Positions 1 to 7,234 of a DNA stretch of 7,915 nucleotides are shown piece by piece. Below the pieces are notes generated by a model, which saw only the letters and a program-made list of their open reading frames with translations, did not search any database and had not been told where the DNA came from. The translations under genes and the position numbers were made by a program. This stretch comes from Actinomycetota bacterium (lineage in GTDB: Bacteria > Actinomycetota > Actinomycetes > Streptosporangiales > Streptosporangiaceae): the NCBI GenBank assembly GCA_003168295.1, contig PMST01000345.1, positions 148 to 8,062 on the forward strand. The letters are read 5' to 3'. Positions within the stretch are counted from its first letter, which is position 1; each line of letters starts with the position of its first letter.

Positions 1-2849
1 GCGCGGAACTCGGGGTCGGCGGGCAGGGCCGCTTCGTCGGCGGCCAGGCTGGCCAGCGTCACCCAGCGCGACCGCTGCTCCTTGGTGAAGCCCGGCCACA
101 CGCACGACCGCTGCGTCGCCGCGGCCCCTGCCGCCCCCGCAGCCCCGACGGCCGGCGCCGGCGCCGGTGGCCCGCCGAAGGCGGCGGCGAGGGTGGCGGC
201 CTCACGCTGGGGGTGGTCCGGTAGCGTGTCGGCGAACAGCGGAGCCAGCAGGTCGTCGGCGGGCACGTGCTTCTCATACAGCAGGCGGGTCATCCGGGTC
301 AGCGCGGGCAGGCCGCCGGCCCAGTCGAACAGCGTCGGCTCCGCGCCGGGCGCGCGGACGGGATCGCGGAACCCCGCGTACCAGTGCATGCCGCTGCAGA
401 ACGGCTTGTTCTGCGAGTGACCGCAGCGGCAGAGCGCGTAGTGCTCGCGGGACGCCCCTTCGGCCCGGGGCACGGCGGCGGCCGCCGCAGCGGTGAGCGG
501 GATGCCGCCCGTCACCCGGTAGGGACCGTCCTGGGTGACCTCGATCGCAGGCTCGCGCCGGTCATGCCAGTCGGCCAGGCCGCGCGCCTCCTCGCCGTCG
601 ACGGCCAGGCTCAGCGCCCCGGACGGGCAGTCGCGCACCGCCCGGACGATCTCGTCCATCCGGCCGCCGCTCGGCGCGACGAAGGGCTCCTTACCCGCAC
701 GGAACACGGCGGCCAGCCGGTCGGTACACAAACCGGAGTGCTGGCAGATGCCCCGGTTGTCGAAGATCGTGACCTGCTGGCCCGGGTAGGTGTCACGCTG
801 GTCGGGCACCCGGTGCGGGTCCTTGCCGCCGGTGAAGCCGGTACCGACGTGCGTCCCGTCGCAGAACGGCTTCAGCGACGAGCCGCCGCACCGGCACAGG
901 GCGAGCTGCGGCGGTACGGGCAGCTGGGTGCCCAGGTGGTCGCGGACCGCGGCGACGTTGGTGACCAGGTACGGGCCGTTGGCGGCGGTCACGATGGCGG
1001 TCGGCAGGCCGCGCTGCCGCTGCTCGAGCTCGGATATCCGCTGGGCCCGCTCCCCCGCCGGCGCCTGCCCGACGGCTACGTCCTGCAGGGCCGCGACGGC
1101 CTCGAGCAACCCGGCCGGTGCGGCGGCACCCAGGCGGACGCGCAGGTCGGTAGCGGCGACCGCGACATCCCAGAGGGAAGGCGCGGGCTTCTGGGGGGCG
1201 GGCTCCTGGGCGGCGGGCTGACCGGGTGTGGCGGGCGAGGACAGGTCGGACAACGAGTCTGCCAGGGGACGCAGCACGCTGTGAACCAGGCGCGCCACGA
1301 TGCGGGCAGGGAGGGGGGCCGGGGCATGAGCGGGGACGGGGGACGAGGCGGGGGCGGGGAGAGCCTGGTAGGCGGAGGTCAGGATGGCGGCCAGGGAGGA
1401 CAGCGAGGCGCCTGGGTGGGCGGTGAAAGCGCTGTTCGTTCGGTAAATTTCTTTGGCCTGGGAGAGCAGGGAGTCGAGGTCCTCGGCCGGGGCCGGGGTT
1501 TCGGTGGCGCTCGGCGGCAGGTGGGCGGCGAGGGACTGCGCGACGTCGTTGAGGCTGGAGCGGATCGCGCCGAGACGGTCGGCGACCCGCGGTGCGCACG
1601 GCATCGCGGGTGTGCAGAACTCGGCGGCCTGCTGGATGCGTTCGGTGAGCAGGATCCAGGCCGCTTCCCGGTGCGGCAGCACGTAGTCGGTGTCGTAAAA
1701 CAGCTCGAAGCTGGGGGAGCCATTGCGGCCGGGGTACTCCGGGCCGGCCGGAAGCGTGGTCGCCAGGTCGCCGAGCGGCCTGACCACCGAACCCATCAGC
1801 GCGACGCCGGCGTCCGCGAGCGCCTTGAGCTGGACGTCGGTTTCTTCGGTGTGGGCGAAGAACCGCTGCAGGAGCAGCAGCAAGATCTCGTAGGAGACGT
1901 TGAACAGGTCCATGACCTGGGTGGTCAGCGGATCGGTGACCAGGGAAATGTCCGGGTCGCGCTCGGCCGGGCGCACGTTGAGGAGGACCACCGGACGGAC
2001 CGGGTCGAAGGCCGGGTTGGACTCGCGGAGGTCGAGGTACTCATCGAGGATCTGGACGAACTGGCCGAAGTGCGCGTCCTGCCACTGGCCGCGCGGGCCC
2101 TCGCCCTGCTCGAGGATCTCGTCGATGGCCCGCTGGGCCGAGGCTGCGTCCGTCACCGCGACCAGTTCGGGCCAGCCGAAGTACTGCTGGGTGGCCTGGG
2201 CCCGCGGCGGGCCGACGAACAGCCAGCGCTCACCGTGTTTTTCGGTCAGGTGAGCGATGCCGGCCTCGATGGACCGGTACAGGTGCCCGACGGTCCGGAA
2301 GTCCTGGGGGCGCGGGACGATGTCGGTTTCCCGCATGACCGGGAGGGCCCGGCCGAAGGCGGCCATCCCGTCGGCGTCGTCGATGTCCATGCCCTCGGGG
2401 CGCTCGAGGAACATGAAGTGGCGGAGTGCCTGCTCGCCGAACGGCAGCAGCGCCAGGTGGACGCCCGCGGGATAGTGCCTGGCAGGCTGGGGGAAGTTCG
2501 GCCGGGACAGGTGCGGGGCCGCCCCGATGGCAGACATCAGGTTCTGCACCAGGGACAGGTGCAGCATCTCCTGCGCGGCCACGTGGCTGATCCGCTTACG
2601 CCAGCTTGTGACGGCGGCTAGCTCGGCGGCGGTCAGCCCTTCGGCCATGGACTGCTTCAGGCTGAAGGCGGCGTACAGGTACTGGCACATGATGCCGTGC
2701 TCGAGTTCGGCCGCCTCGCAGAGCATGTAGATCAGGGCTTCGCGGTGCTCGATCACGAACGGCGCCTCGGGCGGAGCCAGGCCGCCGCGGGTGGCGATGA
2801 CCTGCGCGAGCCGCCCTTTTGGGGCCTGGCGGCTGGTGCTTTCTGTCAT
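1..2849 (-). CDS. Ferritin-like / CDGSH / 4Fe-4S / CDGSH / truncated-globin multidomain iron protein (3' end outside window)
   Basis: I translated this frame by hand: 949 uninterrupted codons from ATG at 2847-2849 to the left edge, where it is still open. RBS GGGGAGG (2857-2863) lies 7 nt upstream of the start. Domains in order: ferritin-like of the VioB/iminophenylpyruvate dimer synthase type, about 30-300, with AELEH (47-51) and QEMLH (93-97), likely metal ligands E50, E94 and H97, and EQGEG (247-251); a helical region to about 440; Pro/Ala-rich linkers (about 495-560); CDGSH site 1 (C652, C654, C663, H667); a divergent 4Fe-4S mono-cluster domain (C702, C708, and C741 in CPSGAL); CDGSH site 2 (C807, C809, C818, H822; reads CSGMH instead of CDGSH); and a group-II truncated-haemoglobin-like domain from about 838 (AGG, LLYEKH, APLF, DHP, FGGP, then RSRWV). 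No signal peptide, so probably cytosolic. The family assignments are from motif recognition. The combined function (redox, oxygen handling or oxidative chemistry) is unknown. It follows the CysRS gene by 53 bases, so is probably co-transcribed. Confidence 0.9.
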   Translation of the reverse strand, partial: MTESTSRQAPKGRLAQVIATRGGLAPPEAPFVIEHREALIYMLCEAAELEHGIMCQYLYAAFSLKQSMAEGLTAAELAAVTSWRKRISHVAAQEMLHLSLVQNLMSAIGAAPHLSRPNFPQPARHYPAGVHLALLPFGEQALRHFMFLERPEGMDIDDADGMAAFGRALPVMRETDIVPRPQDFRTVGHLYRSIEAGIAHLTEKHGERWLFVGPPRAQATQQYFGWPELVAVTDAASAQRAIDEILEQGEGPRGQWQDAHFGQFVQILDEYLDLRESNPAFDPVRPVVLLNVRPAERDPDISLVTDPLTTQVMDLFNVSYEILLLLLQRFFAHTEETDVQLKALADAGVALMGSVVRPLGDLATTLPAGPEYPGRNGSPSFELFYDTDYVLPHREAAWILLTERIQQAAEFCTPAMPCAPRVADRLGAIRSSLNDVAQSLAAHLPPSATETPAPAEDLDSLLSQAKEIYRTNSAFTAHPGASLSSLAAILTSAYQALPAPASSPVPAHAPAPLPARIVARLVHSVLRPLADSLSDLSSPATPGQPAAQEPAPQKPAPSLWDVAVAATDLRVRLGAAAPAGLLEAVAALQDVAVGQAPAGERAQRISELEQRQRGLPTAIVTAANGPYLVTNVAAVRDHLGTQLPVPPQLALCRCGGSSLKPFCDGTHVGTGFTGGKDPHRVPDQRDTYPGQQVTIFDNRGICQHSGLCTDRLAAVFRAGKEPFVAPSGGRMDEIVRAVRDCPSGALSLAVDGEEARGLADWHDRREPAIEVTQDGPYRVTGGIPLTAAAAAAVPRAEGASREHYALCRCGHSQNKPFCSGMHWYAGFRDPVRAPGAEPTLFDWAGGLPALTRMTRLLYEKHVPADDLLAPLFADTLPDHPQREAATLAAAFGGPPAPAPAVGAAGAAGAAATQRSCVWPGFTKEQRSRWVTLASLAADEAALPADPEFR

Positions 2850-2902: not shown

Positions 2903-4375
2903 TCAGCGGAGGTGCCAGGTCGGGCCTTCTGGGGTGTCGGTGAGGGTGACGCCGAGCTCGTCTAGCTCGGCGCGGATCTGGTCGGCGCGGGACCAGTCGC
3001 GCGCCTGGCGGGCTTGGGTGCGGTCGGCGACCAGTTGCTCGATGGCGCGGTTTTCCTCGGGCGACAGGTCGGCGGGCGCACGGCGGTGCACCAGGTCTTC
3101 CGGCTCGAGGGCGGCCAGGCCCAGGCCGAGCAGGGCATCGGCGGAGGCGACCACCGCGCGCTGGCCGTCCGGCGTGATATCCGGGTCACGCAGGGCGTCC
3201 TGGAGAGCCGCGAGGATCCTCGGGGTGCTCAGGTCGGCCGCGATCGCGGCGTCGATCGTGTCCAGGATGCGTTCGGCGGCCGGGTCGTCCTTCACGCGTC
3301 CTTCGGCGTCGGCGAGCGTTTCGATGGCGGGCAGCGGGCGCAGCGGCTGGATTCGTGCCACCAGCCTGCGCAGCGTGGCCTGGGCCGCCTCCACCGCCGC
3401 GGTGGTGAAATCGAGCTGGCTGCGGTAATGGCCGCCGAGCAGGAACAGCCGGTAGGCCATCGGGTGGTAGCCGGCCTCGGTCAGGTCGGCCAGCCGCGGG
3501 GCCCCGCCCGCCGACTTGGCCATCTTCCGGGCGCCCAGCTGCAGGAACTCGGTGTGCAGCCAGTACCGCACCCACGGCTTGCCGTCGCCGAGGTAGGCCT
3601 CGCTCTGCGCGATCTCGTTGACGTGGTGCAGCTCGCGGTGATCTACCCCGCCGGTGTGGATGTCGAAGTGCGGGCCGAGCAAGGCGATGCTCATCACCGA
3701 GCACTCCAGGTGCCAGCCGGGCGCGCCCCAGCCCCACGGGGAGTCCCAGCGCATCAACCGGCGCTGGCCCGGCTCCTCCGCCCGCCACAACGCGAAGTCG
3801 GTCTTGCGGCGGCGCCCCTCGACGTGCTCGACCCGGGCCGCTTCCAGCTGCCCCTCGGCGTCCATCTGGGCCAGCTCCCCGTAACCGGGGTCCTTGGCGG
3901 TGTCGAAGTACAAGCCGGAAGGCAGCCGGTAGGTGAAGCCCTTTCTTTCCAGCTCGGCCGCAAACTCGATCATCTGCGGCACGTAGGCGCTGGCCCGGGG
4001 GTACTCGTCGGCGGGCAGGATGTTCAGCGCGGCAAGGTCGACGAAGAAGATATCGGTGTAGAACGCGGCGATGTCCAGCACCGAACGGTGCTCACGCGCG
4101 GCGGCCACCTCGAGCTTGTCCTCGCCGGTGTTGGTGTCCGCGACCGCGTGTCCCACGTCGGTGATGTTGATGACGTGCCGCACCGCGACGTTCTTCCACC
4201 GCAGCGCACGGCGCACCGTGTCCGAGAACACCCACGCGCGCATGTTGCCCAGGTGCGGGAACGCGTACACGGTCGGCCCGCAGCTGTACATGCCTGTCAC
4301 GTCGCCCGACGCAGTGAAGTCCTCCACCCGCCGACCCAGCGAGTTATACAGCCGCAGCTGATGGCCGCCCGCCAC
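2903..4375 (-). CDS. cysS: Cysteinyl-tRNA synthetase, divergent type
   Basis: Class I aminoacyl-tRNA synthetase, 490 aa from the chosen start, which normally activates cysteine with ATP and charges tRNA-Cys. Visible landmarks: YSCGPTVY (30-37), the HIGH-equivalent HLGN (41-44), NITDVGH (70-76), WHLECS (221-226), HHVNEIAQSEA (250-260), and the KMSKS-equivalent KMAKS (284-288). The four zinc/cysteine-discrimination ligands known from E. coli CysRS are all present as C32, C225, H250 and E254. A C-terminal helical DALR/anticodon region follows, with DWSRADQIRAEL (460-471), so the enzyme is full length and is not MshC. An ATG at 4417 would add 14 residues but has no RBS. The GTG at 4373-4375 has GGGAGG 4 nt upstream and begins at the usual family N-terminus. 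The sequence style (CGPTVY, HxGN, NITDVGH) resembles CysRS of candidate-phyla type more than the typical actinobacterial housekeeping enzyme, so it may be a second copy; this is from memory, not a search. Confidence 0.9.
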   Translation of the reverse strand: MAGGHQLRLYNSLGRRVEDFTASGDVTGMYSCGPTVYAFPHLGNMRAWVFSDTVRRALRWKNVAVRHVINITDVGHAVADTNTGEDKLEVAAAREHRSVLDIAAFYTDIFFVDLAALNILPADEYPRASAYVPQMIEFAAELERKGFTYRLPSGLYFDTAKDPGYGELAQMDAEGQLEAARVEHVEGRRRKTDFALWRAEEPGQRRLMRWDSPWGWGAPGWHLECSVMSIALLGPHFDIHTGGVDHRELHHVNEIAQSEAYLGDGKPWVRYWLHTEFLQLGARKMAKSAGGAPRLADLTEAGYHPMAYRLFLLGGHYRSQLDFTTAAVEAAQATLRRLVARIQPLRPLPAIETLADAEGRVKDDPAAERILDTIDAAIAADLSTPRILAALQDALRDPDITPDGQRAVVASADALLGLGLAALEPEDLVHRRAPADLSPEENRAIEQLVADRTQARQARDWSRADQIRAELDELGVTLTDTPEGPTWHLR

Positions 4376-4379
4376 GTTT

Positions 4380-4385
4380 CCTCCC
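4380..4385 (-). promoter_or_regulatory. Ribosome-binding site that decides the CysRS start
   Basis: The minus strand reads GGGAGG then AAAC then GTG (4375-4373). The alternative ATG at 4417 is preceded by pyrimidine-rich sequence with no Shine-Dalgarno match. This supports the shorter 490-aa protein. Confidence 0.7.
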
Positions 4386-4456
4386 GCTCGTCTGCCTTGT
4401 TGATGCCAGATCGCCATGATAGAGGCGGGCGAGGGGATGCGGGGTCTGGCGGCGGG

Positions 4457-5323
4457 CTAGCGGTTCGGGGCGGGCGGGCGGCGGCCGTGCGATCCGGCGG
4501 CGCGGCTTCTGGTGTGGAAGTCGTGGTCGTGCCTGATCAGGCGCTGGACGCCGGCCCGCTGTTTGGCGTCGAGCTGATCGGCCGAGTCGCCGACCAGGCT
4601 TAGCAGGTAACCGGTCGAGGTTCCGACCGGGACGGTCGGGTTGCGGGACGGGCCGAGCCTTGACCTGCGGTGAGCGAGGATGACCACGCGCTGGACCGTG
4701 ACCGGCTGGCCGCGCTCGCGCAGGAATCGTTCCAGCGCGTCGGCCGGCTCGTTGACCTGCATGCTCGGCGAGCGCCCCCTCCGGTCCGCGATCGGCCGCT
4801 GCTCGACCAGGTTCCCGTAATTGTCGTACTTGTCGGCCTGCCAGCGGTCACCATCGATGTGTACGGTGGCGTTGAGGTTCTTCACCTCGATCGCGAAGAG
4901 GCCTTGCGGGCCGAGCAGCAGGTGGTCGATCTCACCACGCCGGTTCCGGTACCCGCGCAGCAGCGTCCAGTCGTCGTCCAGCGCGCGGCCCAGCTCGACC
5001 GCGACCAGTTCCTCGCCCGCGATCCCGGCCTTGAGTATCTGTTCGGTATCAGTGGACCTGGCCGCCAGGACCGGACGGCTGGGCACCCGGCGCTTCTCGG
5101 TCCAGGCGGCGACCACCAACCGCAGCCAGACCCCCCAGCGATGCTCGGCCCGGGCCCGGTCACGCTTCACCCGGACGGTCTGGACCCGAGCGCGATACTG
5201 GATCAGCTCGTCCTCATAGCGGGCCAGGGCGCGTTTCCCGGCCGCCTCGCGCCGCCGCGACGCGTCGTCGAGCATGTCGGCCGGATGGTTGGAAAGCTCA
5301 ACGATCAGCATGGCACGACTCAC
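4457..5323 (-). CDS. NERD-domain (nuclease-related) protein
   Basis: 288 aa from GTG at 5323, which directly follows an in-frame TGA (5326-5324), so the gene cannot start further upstream. An ATG at 5311 (residue 5) is an equally possible start. Neither has a clear RBS. Residues about 20-65 are rich in Arg/Glu/Ala and look like a charged helix or coiled coil. From about 98 a NERD domain begins: GIAGEE (100-105), then RGEIDHLLLGP (129-139) and GLFAIEVKNL (141-150). These give the PD-(D/E)xK-like set D133, E146 and K148 expected of this fold, so the catalytic residues look intact. The C-terminus is basic and Pro-rich. No signal peptide or convincing membrane helix, although WLRLVVAAW (67-75) is hydrophobic. 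NERD proteins are presumed DNA-processing or nucleic-acid-associated, but substrates are mostly unknown. First gene of a probable three-gene operon, 81 bases ahead of the CysRS gene. Confidence 0.85.
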   Translation of the reverse strand: MSRAMLIVELSNHPADMLDDASRRREAAGKRALARYEDELIQYRARVQTVRVKRDRARAEHRWGVWLRLVVAAWTEKRRVPSRPVLAARSTDTEQILKAGIAGEELVAVELGRALDDDWTLLRGYRNRRGEIDHLLLGPQGLFAIEVKNLNATVHIDGDRWQADKYDNYGNLVEQRPIADRRGRSPSMQVNEPADALERFLRERGQPVTVQRVVILAHRRSRLGPSRNPTVPVGTSTGYLLSLVGDSADQLDAKQRAGVQRLIRHDHDFHTRSRAAGSHGRRPPAPNR

Positions 5324-5680: not shown

Positions 5681-5719
5681 TTCTGGTAGGGCCAGAAGGC
5701 TGCGGGCATGCCGCCGCAG
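5681..5719 (+). promoter_or_regulatory. Two consecutive hairpins in the leader of the GH26-like gene
   Basis: Hairpin 1: TTCTGG (5681-5686), loop TAGGG, CCAGAA (5692-5697). Hairpin 2: CTGCGG (5700-5705), 8-nt loop, CCGCAG (5714-5719). A small CCGG-TTTCA-CCGG element follows at 5731-5743. They lie 50-90 nt ahead of the start codon and would fold in the untranslated leader. I do not recognise a known riboswitch class, including the c-di-AMP (ydaO) type often found before actinobacterial wall enzymes. Confidence 0.4.
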
Positions 5720-5753
5720 GGCTATCCGGCCCGGTTTCACCGGCAGGCACCGA

Positions 5754-5760
5754 GGAGAGG
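5754..5760 (+). promoter_or_regulatory. Ribosome-binding site of the GH26-like gene
   Basis: GGAGAGG, 7 nt before ATG 5768. It selects this start over the in-frame ATG at 5708, which has no RBS and lies inside a hairpin. Confidence 0.75.
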
Positions 5761-5767
5761 AGCACGG

Positions 5768-7234
5768 ATGGAGCGAAGGCCCCATGGTCGGCACAGCGAA
5801 GTTCTCGCGCCGCTGAGGACGCCGCTGAGGGCGTCGGCCAGAAGCCGCCGCCGCCTGGCCGTCAAGGTGCGCTTCACCGCGATGGCCGTGCTGGCCGCGG
5901 TCAGCGTGCTGGCCGGAGTGCTCTTCGTGACCAGCCGGGGGCACACCCCGCCGGCCAGGATTGCGGCGGCCAGTTCGTCGGTACCGCTCTTCGGAGCCTC
6001 GGTGGGGTATGAAGGCCTCGCACAGACTACGGCGCAGTTCGGCCGGATGCCGATCGTCCGGGTCTATTACCCGGGCCTGCCGGCCTCCAACGCGTGGGAC
6101 GGCGGCCAGGCCGGGGCCAATGACTCGGCGGTTATCGTCAGCTTCAAGGCGCTGCCGAAGGACATCCTGTCCGGTGCCGACGACGCGACGCTGACGCATT
6201 TCTTTGACACCGCGCCGACCGGCCACCCGATCTACTACTCCTACTATCACGAGCCCGAGGACAACATCGCGGCCGGGGAGTTCACCCTGGCCGACTACAA
6301 GGCAGCCTGGGCCCGGGTGGCCGCGCTCGCGGGTGCCGCGCACAATCCGGATCTGCACTCCACCCTGATCCTGATGTCCTGGGATCTGGTCAAGGCTTCC
6401 GGCCGGGACTGGAAGTCCTACCTGCCTGGCGGCGGCATCATCAGCACGCTCGGCTGGGACGCCTATCCGGTGGGCAGTGCGACGAACGTCAACCCGCAGC
6501 CCACCTCGCCGGCCGATTTCATGGGCCCGTGCATCGCGGCGTCCGAAAGCGTCGGACTACCCTACGGGTTCGCTGAATTCGGTCTCTCCACGGCCACCGG
6601 CCGGCCGGCCTGGATGACGGAGGTCGGCAACTACCTGCTGAGCAGCGGCGCCCTGTTCGCCACGGTGTTCAACGGCGTCGCGGAGTATCCGACGCTGCAG
6701 CTGACCGACCAGGCCTCGCAGGATGTCTGGAAAGGCTTCGTGGCGCAGTCCGCCCAGGCCCAGTCTGACCCGACGCCGTCCTCGCCGGCGCCATCGTCCC
6801 CGGTCACCCAGCCGACGGGCACCACGCCGACCCCGACCGCCAGCACCCCGGCGCCCACGGCCAGCCCGTCAGGCTCTCCGGCCAGCCCGTCAGGCTCTCC
6901 GGCCAGCCCGGCCCCGGCCGCCGGCAGCAGCTGGGTCAGCGGGCTGAGCCTGAGCCCGGCGCAGTTGATCGGCACCGGAAGCAACGACACGACCATCAGT
7001 TTCCGGATCGGTCAGGCGGCTGACGTTACGGTCCTGGTGCTGGCGGCCGACGGTAGCGTGGTCCGGCAGATCGCCAGGCCGGCGCGTACCGCGGGCCGGG
7101 TCTCGGTGCCCTACTACGGTTACACCGACAGCCACACCCGGCTGCCGGCCGGAACCTACCAGGTCCTGGTGGTAGCCAGCAACGGGAGCGGCAGCGCCAG
7201 CGCCGAAACGGCGCTCACCATCAGCGCCCCGTAA
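5768..7234 (+). CDS. Membrane-anchored or secreted GH26-like glycoside hydrolase with C-terminal FlgD-like Ig domain
   Basis: 488 aa. A basic N-terminus (Arg-rich, 1-36) and one hydrophobic helix (about 37-54) form a signal anchor or uncleaved signal peptide, so the rest is extracellular. Residues about 73-330 resemble the (beta/alpha)8 fold of glycoside hydrolase family 26: YYSYYHEPED (157-166) supplies the likely acid/base E162, and YGFAEFG (266-272) the likely nucleophile E270. Both catalytic glutamates are therefore present. GH26 enzymes are mainly beta-mannanases and related beta-glycanases; the substrate here is not readable. A Ser/Pro/Thr-rich linker (about 334-386) includes a duplicated 7-residue unit. 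A C-terminal FlgD-like Ig domain follows (about 388-488), with GTYQVLVVA (462-470) near its end, probably for spacing or wall attachment. The upstream ATG at 5708 would add 20 residues but lacks an RBS. The gene stands alone, followed by a strong hairpin. Confidence 0.8.
   Translation: MERRPHGRHSEVLAPLRTPLRASARSRRRLAVKVRFTAMAVLAAVSVLAGVLFVTSRGHTPPARIAAASSSVPLFGASVGYEGLAQTTAQFGRMPIVRVYYPGLPASNAWDGGQAGANDSAVIVSFKALPKDILSGADDATLTHFFDTAPTGHPIYYSYYHEPEDNIAAGEFTLADYKAAWARVAALAGAAHNPDLHSTLILMSWDLVKASGRDWKSYLPGGGIISTLGWDAYPVGSATNVNPQPTSPADFMGPCIAASESVGLPYGFAEFGLSTATGRPAWMTEVGNYLLSSGALFATVFNGVAEYPTLQLTDQASQDVWKGFVAQSAQAQSDPTPSSPAPSSPVTQPTGTTPTPTASTPAPTASPSGSPASPSGSPASPAPAAGSSWVSGLSLSPAQLIGTGSNDTTISFRIGQAADVTVLVLAADGSVVRQIARPARTAGRVSVPYYGYTDSHTRLPAGTYQVLVVASNGSGSASAETALTISAP
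6859..6910 (+). repeat. In-frame 21-bp tandem repeat in the linker of the GH26-like protein
   Basis: Two identical 21-bp units (6859-6879 and 6880-6900, beginning GGCCAGCCCG) followed by a 10-bp partial third. Each unit adds seven residues of the A-S-P-S-G-S-P type. Identity at the DNA level, not only the protein level, indicates a recent duplication, so linker length may vary between strains. Confidence 0.9.

What the first reader, a model, noticed from the sequence alone, without database searches (positions are those of the whole stretch)
1..2849. One polypeptide joining a ferritin-like domain, two CDGSH sites, a 4Fe-4S mono-cluster domain and a truncated globin
At least 949 residues in one open frame carry five predicted iron or haem sites. 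Each domain is known alone, and CDGSH next to the divergent 4Fe-4S domain is familiar, but the full chain with a VioB-type diiron domain at one end and a globin-like domain at the other suggests a self-contained electron-transfer or O2/NO-handling machine. The domains are read from motifs; the function is inference. I cannot say whether this architecture has been described.
Basis: partly seen in the sequence, partly recalled or inferred. Interest (0 to 1): 0.85.

Follow-up and report, generated by a model that had tools for sequence, protein, structure and literature searches.

The report
Iron-sulfur diiron protein with haemless globin
This is one long bacterial protein that chains a ferritin-like domain, three predicted iron-sulfur sites and a globin-shaped domain, but in this branch of the family the globin has lost the residue that normally holds haem; the family is widespread in bacteria and its job is unknown.

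Summary
The reading frame is real: 949 codons at 3..2849 (-), running off the window; a database copy, one difference in 949, has 1086 residues. Pfam confirms Ferritin-like, two zf-CDGSH and Fer4_19. The fifth domain has a truncated-globin fold, but its haem site is gone: where relatives carry the F helix with the proximal histidine, the window has an Ala/Pro/Gly-rich stretch. 0 of 120 closest homologues keep the motif; 120 of 120 ferritin-less short-form homologues do. So: four candidate metal sites, a globin presumably without haem whose A-E helices stay highly conserved, and an unnamed C-terminal domain outside the window. The architecture is common (3,307 homologues among a capped 7,991 scored) and auto-named; I found no functional description in the papers searched. 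Relatives shuffle the modules: separate genes, reversed fusion, two genes of one genome. One branch naturally has Cys for the first CDGSH site's His (110 of 120), as in engineered mitoNEET. Best reading: an oxygen-active diiron domain fed by a built-in CDGSH/Fer4_19/CDGSH relay, the globin kept as scaffold or sensor. Mechanism is inference.

The parts
3..2849 (-). Fusion ORF, residues 1-949 of a protein of about 1086 residues; runs off the low end of the window
   Evidence: full-length copy P0001 differs at one residue
1704..2759 (-). Ferritin-like (VioB-type) domain with its C-terminal extension, residues 31-382; Pfam PF12902 core is residues 44-268 (2046-2720). Candidate diiron ligands (inferred) E48, E94, H97, E195, E250, H260
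1017..1670 (-). Mostly helical linker, residues 394-611, less conserved from 411 on
   Evidence: mean column identity 0.64 for 411-611
834..998 (-). CDGSH site 1 (CRCGGSSLKPFCDGTH), residues 618-672: ligands C652, C654, C663, H667
603..788 (-). Fer4_19 (DUF1271) domain, residues 688-749: conserved C702, H704, C708, C741
381..530 (-). CDGSH site 2 (CRCGHSQNKPFCSGMH), residues 774-823: ligands C807, C809, C818, H822; His kept in 360 of 360 homologues read
3..338 (-). Truncated-globin-like domain, residues 838 to about 966 (cut by the window edge at 949)
   Evidence: 2bmm E 1.7e-4; model
84..167 (-). Residues 895-922: low-complexity stretch in place of the globin F helix and proximal histidine
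   Evidence: low pLDDT; mean column identity 0.28, half gaps
2903..4417 (-). Upstream neighbour on the same strand, cysteine--tRNA ligase-type gene, 53 bp before the fusion ORF; not shown to be part of the system
   Evidence: (TIGR00435 378 bits, cutoff 340)

Best explanation
A modular redox protein. The ferritin-like domain carries a complete set of candidate diiron ligands and is the oxygen-active end (an oxidase, oxygenase or peroxide/O2 scavenger); the CDGSH - Fer4_19 - CDGSH block ('CDC', type-7 CISD) is the built-in relay that brings electrons to it. In the family the same relay can instead or also serve a haem-carrying truncated globin. In the window's branch the globin has lost the F helix and proximal His and so should not bind haem in the usual way; it persists as a scaffold, docking or sensing piece. 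Shown: domains, ligand conservation, haem-ligand loss, module shuffling. Inferred: metal binding, electron flow, chemistry and direction.
For: Domains by profile. E48, E94, H97, E195, E250, H260 are invariant in 44 of 44 sampled intact ferritin-like domains from five architectures; in both degenerate Ktedonobacterial copies, which keep the globin His, five of the six are changed together (E48, E94, E195, E250, H260; one change, E250 in L044, is to Asp) while H97 stays, as expected if they form one site. The CDC block is in one ORF in 46 of 51 loci and in 360 of 360 homologues. Modules come apart and rejoin around it: standalone ferritin and CDC-globin on separate contigs of one Nocardia genome (L014, L040); reversed order CDC-globin-Cterm-ferritin in L033; one Ktedonobacteraceae MAG with a ferritin-CDC gene without globin and a CDC-globin gene (L062, L022) and one Chloroflexi MAG likewise (L047, L021). 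Globin His motif in 0 of 120 window-type and 120 of 120 short-form homologues. In the window's group globin A-E helices have 0.91 mean identity, G-H 0.78, the F gap 0.28.
Against: No metal, haem or activity was measured, and no call tests the electron path: the model gave me no cluster positions or inter-domain distances. Fer4_19 has three conserved Cys, so its cluster may not be a simple [4Fe-4S]. Another branch keeps ferritin and globin His together (group C, 109 of 120 by motif), so the two are not exclusive. The ferritin/globin-His association rests on few independent events: one pair on starred branches, p = 1, and L042 lacks both. At least 5 of the 9 His-less rows of A2 still match Bac_globin at E <= 1 (34 of 38 rows match). 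PF12902 includes VioB, a biosynthetic enzyme, so the chemistry could be unrelated to stress or respiration.
Confidence: 0.5

Rival explanations
1. Iron and cluster handling rather than catalysis: the ferritin-like domain takes up or oxidises iron and the labile CDGSH clusters are donated to client proteins, so the chain is an iron-sulfur repair or storage protein.
For: NEET clusters with the 3Cys-1His ligand set can be transferred to acceptors (PMC6006223, passages); the window keeps 3Cys-1His at both sites, and site-2 His is kept in 360 of 360 homologues.
Against: In the sister branch 110 of 120 homologues have Cys in place of the site-1 His, the change that in engineered NEET proteins stabilises the cluster and lowers its potential to about -300 mV, which suits electron transfer better than donation. 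None of the ten recurrent neighbour families that I annotated (of 12 found in three or more loci) is an Fe-S assembly gene.
Confidence: 0.2
2. One reading: an intact haem globin at the C-terminus handles O2 or NO with electrons from the Fe-S chain.
For: Truncated-globin fold; short-form and group C relatives keep a His aligned with that of group II truncated haemoglobins. Y858 and F872 are invariant in the window's group.
Against: The window copy and 120 of 120 closest homologues lack the F-helix His motif. Of those 120, 90 have no His in the stretch, 20 have one at varying spacing and 10 could not be cut out by the pattern. No His is among the near-invariant positions of the globin part of A2.
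Confidence: 0.07
3. Biosynthetic enzyme related to VioB: the ferritin-like domain joins or oxidises a small metabolite and the Fe-S domains supply electrons.
For: Partial match to the VioB model over its C-terminal part (81 bits; 101 bits for L062).
Against: Far below the VioB cutoff of 1250 bits. No neighbour family recurs in more than 9 of 51 loci within up to 10 kb; of the ten annotated, P450 (3 loci) and an S-adenosyl methyltransferase (4 loci) could be biosynthetic.
Confidence: 0.2

Closest known systems
Type 7 CISD proteins, subtype CDC (CDGSH - DUF1271/Fer4_19 - CDGSH), PMC3174974
   Same: Same order of two CDGSH motifs around a DUF1271/Fer4_19 domain
   Different: Adds ferritin-like, globin and C-terminal domains; 'ferritin' and 'globin' have 0 occurrences in that paper's main text
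Ferritin-like domain proteins with CDGSH (listed in PMC5311916 and PMC5859297; e.g. Asticcacaulis plasmid protein WP_338736526.1)
   Same: PF12902 + Fer4_19 + two CDGSH in one chain
   Different: The 653-residue Asticcacaulis protein has no Pfam globin hit and ends after its second CDGSH site
Unnamed database family 'CDGSH-type Zn-finger protein/truncated hemoglobin YjbI' (JGI automatic name)
   Same: The window's protein belongs to it: the 120 listed hits share PF12902, PF06902, PF09360
   Different: The name implies a haemoglobin; in the window's branch the haem ligand is missing
Group II truncated haemoglobins (2bmm, 5d1v, 5v3t)
   Same: Fold outside the F helix; Y858 and F872 kept
   Different: No F helix, no proximal His
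VioB (iminophenyl-pyruvate dimer synthase)
   Same: Ferritin-like domain related to its C-terminal part
   Different: No full-length match; different partner domains
Non-haem globin domain of RsbR (stressosome)
   Same: A bacterial globin fold kept without haem (recalled; only a search listing seen)
   Different: Different protein context; no sequence comparison made

Membership tests
Type 7 CISD, subtype CDC | CDGSH motif, then DUF1271/Fer4_19, then CDGSH motif in one chain | tested here: met
   positions; definition from passages of PMC3174974
Type 7 CISD, subtype CDC | 3Cys-1His ligands at both motifs | tested here: met
   C652/C654/C663/H667 and C807/C809/C818/H822
Type 7 CISD, subtype CDC | Binds two [2Fe-2S] clusters | not testable with these tools
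   needs purified protein
PF12902 ferritin-like family | Profile match above the curated cutoff | tested here: met
   145 bits, cutoff 22.3
PF12902 ferritin-like family | Diiron ligand set | tested here: inconclusive
   Six candidate ligands invariant in 44 of 44 sampled intact domains; the assignment is inferred, geometry and metal binding not tested
VioB equivalog (TIGR04492) | Score above 1250 bits | tested here: not met
   81 bits, model residues 592-937 only
Truncated haemoglobin (Bac_globin, PF01152) | Pfam gathering score | tested here: not met
   No hit at E <= 1 in the window piece or at E <= 10 in full-length P0001. Of 38 rows of A2, 34 match at E <= 1; 9 of the 38 lack the His, so at least 5 of those match, if weakly
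Truncated haemoglobin (Bac_globin, PF01152) | Globin fold | tested here: met
Truncated haemoglobin (Bac_globin, PF01152) | Proximal (F8) histidine | tested here: not met
   motif absent in the window and in 120 of 120 closest homologues; role of the His recalled

The most novel reading that the evidence does not exclude
The family is a plug-in redox hub: one CDGSH/Fer4_19/CDGSH relay that evolution has wired, fused in both orders or split apart, to two oxygen-active ends, a diiron ferritin-like domain and a haem globin. Branches specialise by switching one end off, in the window's case while keeping most of its fold under strong selection, and retune the relay by swapping a single CDGSH ligand from His to Cys. 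In the window's branch the diiron end is on and the globin has become a conserved haemless regulatory or docking domain.
Probability: 0.3. Interest if true: 0.75.

Novelty: new variant of a known kind. Interest (0 to 1): 0.52.

Why it matters
If the relay really feeds either of two oxygen-active ends, this widespread but apparently unstudied family would give bacterial CDGSH proteins a concrete electron-transfer job. It also offers natural experiments: a globin that keeps its A-E helices but not its haem ligand, and a natural His-to-Cys CDGSH site in a sister branch that mirrors a well-known engineered NEET mutant.

Tried and rejected
Sequencing error or accidental join: rejected (full-length copy and many homologues with the same domains). 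Operon-based function: besides the core gene, 12 gene clusters recur in 3 to 9 of the 51 loci within flanks of up to 10 kb; I annotated ten of the 12 (home-made gene calls, so neighbours can be missed or false). The window's cysteine--tRNA ligase gene has a relative in one of 51 loci (L010). Defence system: no PADLOC hit for the fusion; the NERD neighbour hits PglW weakly. VioB membership: not met. Name for the C-terminal domain: no Pfam or NCBIfam family; its fold was not searched alone, and the structure lists are filled by the ferritin and globin parts, so no claim of a new fold. Plasmids: 194 records match some part of P0001, none covers 80% of it. Statistical proof that ferritin and globin-His states exclude each other: not reached. 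The 105 tree rows were chosen with minority states added on purpose, the tree is 'quick', 42 of 101 inner branches are drawn open; five rows with doubtful states were left out, two rows (P0346, P0348) rescored to His present after reading them, and L047, which has no globin, was scored as lacking the His. The association is a description of clades. A genome survey above genus level was not obtained. The DNA around two Streptomyces/Nonomuraea plasmid hits carries no annotation.

Full report
What is in the window. The finding lies in an open frame on the minus strand, 3..2849, ATG start, 949 codons, cut by the window edge. GC by codon position is 0.74/0.52/0.91. Pfam finds PF12902 Ferritin-like at residues 44-268, two PF09360 zf-CDGSH stretches and PF06902 Fer4_19 at 688-749, all well above cutoff. 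NCBIfam gives only a partial match to VioB (81 bits, cutoff 1250). The best homologue, P0001, differs from the window at one residue in 949 and is 1086 residues long, so the frame is complete elsewhere and not a joining error. Its extra residues hold a conserved domain of about 75 residues ('FxxHIKPLFRxxDRxSMxFAFDLWSxxDVxxHAxAILxRLxxGTMPCDGAWP', from the consensus of A2) with no Pfam or NCBIfam name. In Trebonia a separate short ORF carries a relative of this domain (L060).

How common it is. The protein search scored 7991 candidates (a cap) and found 3307 with E <= 1e-3; the 120 listed share the three Pfam families, and many carry the automatic JGI name 'CDGSH-type Zn-finger protein/truncated hemoglobin YjbI'. 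Two further searches, with a short form (L017) and a Solirubrobacterales form (L005), gave 3093 of 7996 and 2021 of 7995 scored; the three sets overlap to an unknown degree. I call the three listed sets of 120 window-type, short-form and group C. One scan of species genomes gave 51 loci, mostly Actinomycetota, with Chloroflexota, Dormiibacterota and single Bacteroidota, Acidobacteriota and Eremiobacterota records. Many are MAGs, whose labels may err.

The globin. The last 118 residues match Thermobifida truncated haemoglobin at E 1.7e-4, and the full-length model (mean pLDDT 80.9) matches truncated haemoglobins. But aligned with relatives, the stretch that in them reads GGPxxYSxxYGGYxRMxSQHxGKxLTEEQRARW is in the window GGPPAPAPAVGAAGAAGAAATQRSCVWPGFTKEQRSRW. 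The QH of the relatives aligns with the RH of solved truncated haemoglobins (2bmm, 5d1v), the proximal haem ligand (ligand role recalled). A strict motif finds it in 0 of 120 window-type and 120 of 120 short-form homologues; in group C a slightly looser one finds it in 112 of 120. Of the other 8, reading shows three with a His at the aligned place (P0346, P0348, P0359), one cut or frameshifted (P0352), one with Leu there (P0313) and three degenerate (P0350, P0351, P0353). In the window-type set 90 of 120 have no His in the stretch, 20 have one at varying spacing, 10 were not parsed. In that set the globin A-E helices have mean column identity 0.91, as high as the ferritin-like domain (0.90) and Fer4_19 (0.92); G-H 0.78; the F gap 0.28 with half gaps; Y858 and F872 are invariant. 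The domain is kept, at least in its first half, rather than decaying.

The relay. The block CDGSH - Fer4_19 - CDGSH matches subtype CDC of type 7 CISDs (PMC3174974, passages). Site 2 keeps its His in 360 of 360 homologues and in 46 of 46 loci that hold both motifs in one ORF (46 of 51 do). Site 1 has His in 113 of 120 window-type (4 Cys, 2 Asp, 1 Glu), 118 of 120 short-form (2 Cys) and 10 of 120 group C homologues (110 Cys), and Cys in 10 of the 46 loci. The same His-to-Cys change made in mitoNEET, NAF-1 and At-NEET stabilises the cluster and, in the review's words, takes the potential from about 30 or 0 mV to values near those of ferredoxins, about -300 mV (PMC6006223, passages). The window keeps His at site 1. 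A search for a natural Cys form in print listed three papers; the passages seen of two of them speak of engineered mutants only.

Modules shuffle. Besides the window's order there are: short forms without ferritin (L017 and others); a reversed chain CDC-globin-Cterm-ferritin (L033); a Nocardia genome with ferritin and CDC-globin on separate contigs (L014, L040); a Ktedonobacteraceae MAG with a degenerate-ferritin CDC-globin gene (L022) and an intact ferritin-CDC gene without globin (L062); and a Chloroflexi MAG with L047 (ferritin-CDC, no globin) and L021 (CDC-globin). In 40 genomes of the genus of that Nocardia (itself included), 19 had any match; 4 had a match through the CDC and C-terminal parts, one a broken remnant, and many only a separate globin.

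Tree. On the CDC core of 105 chosen rows, with the site-1 ligand masked, the window-type rows form one clade of 31 (SH-aLRT 96.5) in which no row has the globin His, one of them (L045) being cut off before that point. L012, L029, P0313, P0351 and L042 lack the His outside this clade. Presence of ferritin, of globin His and of site-1 His need 7 changes each. Among 100 scored rows: ferritin without His 34, His without ferritin 41, both 24, neither 1 (L042). The test on independent pairs has no power (one pair on starred branches, p = 1), so the association is described, not proven.

Neighbours. No gene cluster besides the core recurs in more than 9 of 51 loci within flanks of up to 10 kb: ABC transporter 9, LysR 7, DJ-1/PfpI 6, others 3-4. 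In the window the fusion gene follows a cysteine--tRNA ligase gene (53 bp) and a NERD gene on the same strand; the ligase has a relative in one locus, L010.

Interpretation. The best-supported reading is a diiron redox protein with its own Fe-S relay, whose globin in this branch should no longer carry haem. The relay as electron path, the diiron chemistry and the role of the haemless globin are inference. In print: two phylogenetic surveys list CDGSH with ferritin-like domains (PMC5311916, PMC5859297; passages). 'Truncated hemoglobin' with CDGSH gave 0 papers, as did; searches listed no paper whose title, or passages where I opened it, describes the fusion with a globin. Only CC-licensed PubMed Central papers were searched.

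Noticed in passing
L005, L006, L007, L009, L011 and P0241-P0360 (first CDGSH site): Natural His-to-Cys replacement of the fourth cluster ligand of CDGSH site 1 (e.g. CRCGxSxxKPxCDGAC) in 110 of 120 group C homologues, with scattered cases elsewhere, including Asp (2) and Glu (1) among 120 window-type homologues.
   Followed up: partly
L033:3604-6738: Reversed domain order: CDC-globin-C-terminal domain first, ferritin-like domain last; the ORF runs to the contig end.
   Followed up: partly
L050:5235-6039 and G032:C137: Broken remnant of the fusion gene in Nocardia (L050: Nocardia seriolae): only about the first 100 and last 150 residues match. Described only.
   Followed up: no
L060:658-1059: Separate short ORF in Trebonia whose first part resembles the unnamed C-terminal domain (50% identity; ORF).
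   Followed up: no
window 2903-4417: Cysteine--tRNA ligase-type gene directly upstream of the fusion gene; scores above the cysS cutoff and partly matches MshC.
   Followed up: partly
window 4457-5323: NERD-domain protein with weak similarity to parts of MAD6 and PglW.
   Followed up: no
window 5708-7234: Protein with a FlgD Ig-like C-terminus; its N-terminus looks exported and its central part (HEPE motif) like a glycoside hydrolase to me (recalled, no profile hit).
   Followed up: no
L061:736-1200: Separate truncated globin of Trebonia related to the fused one, with a His at the F-helix place, in a genome whose fused globin lacks it.
   Followed up: partly
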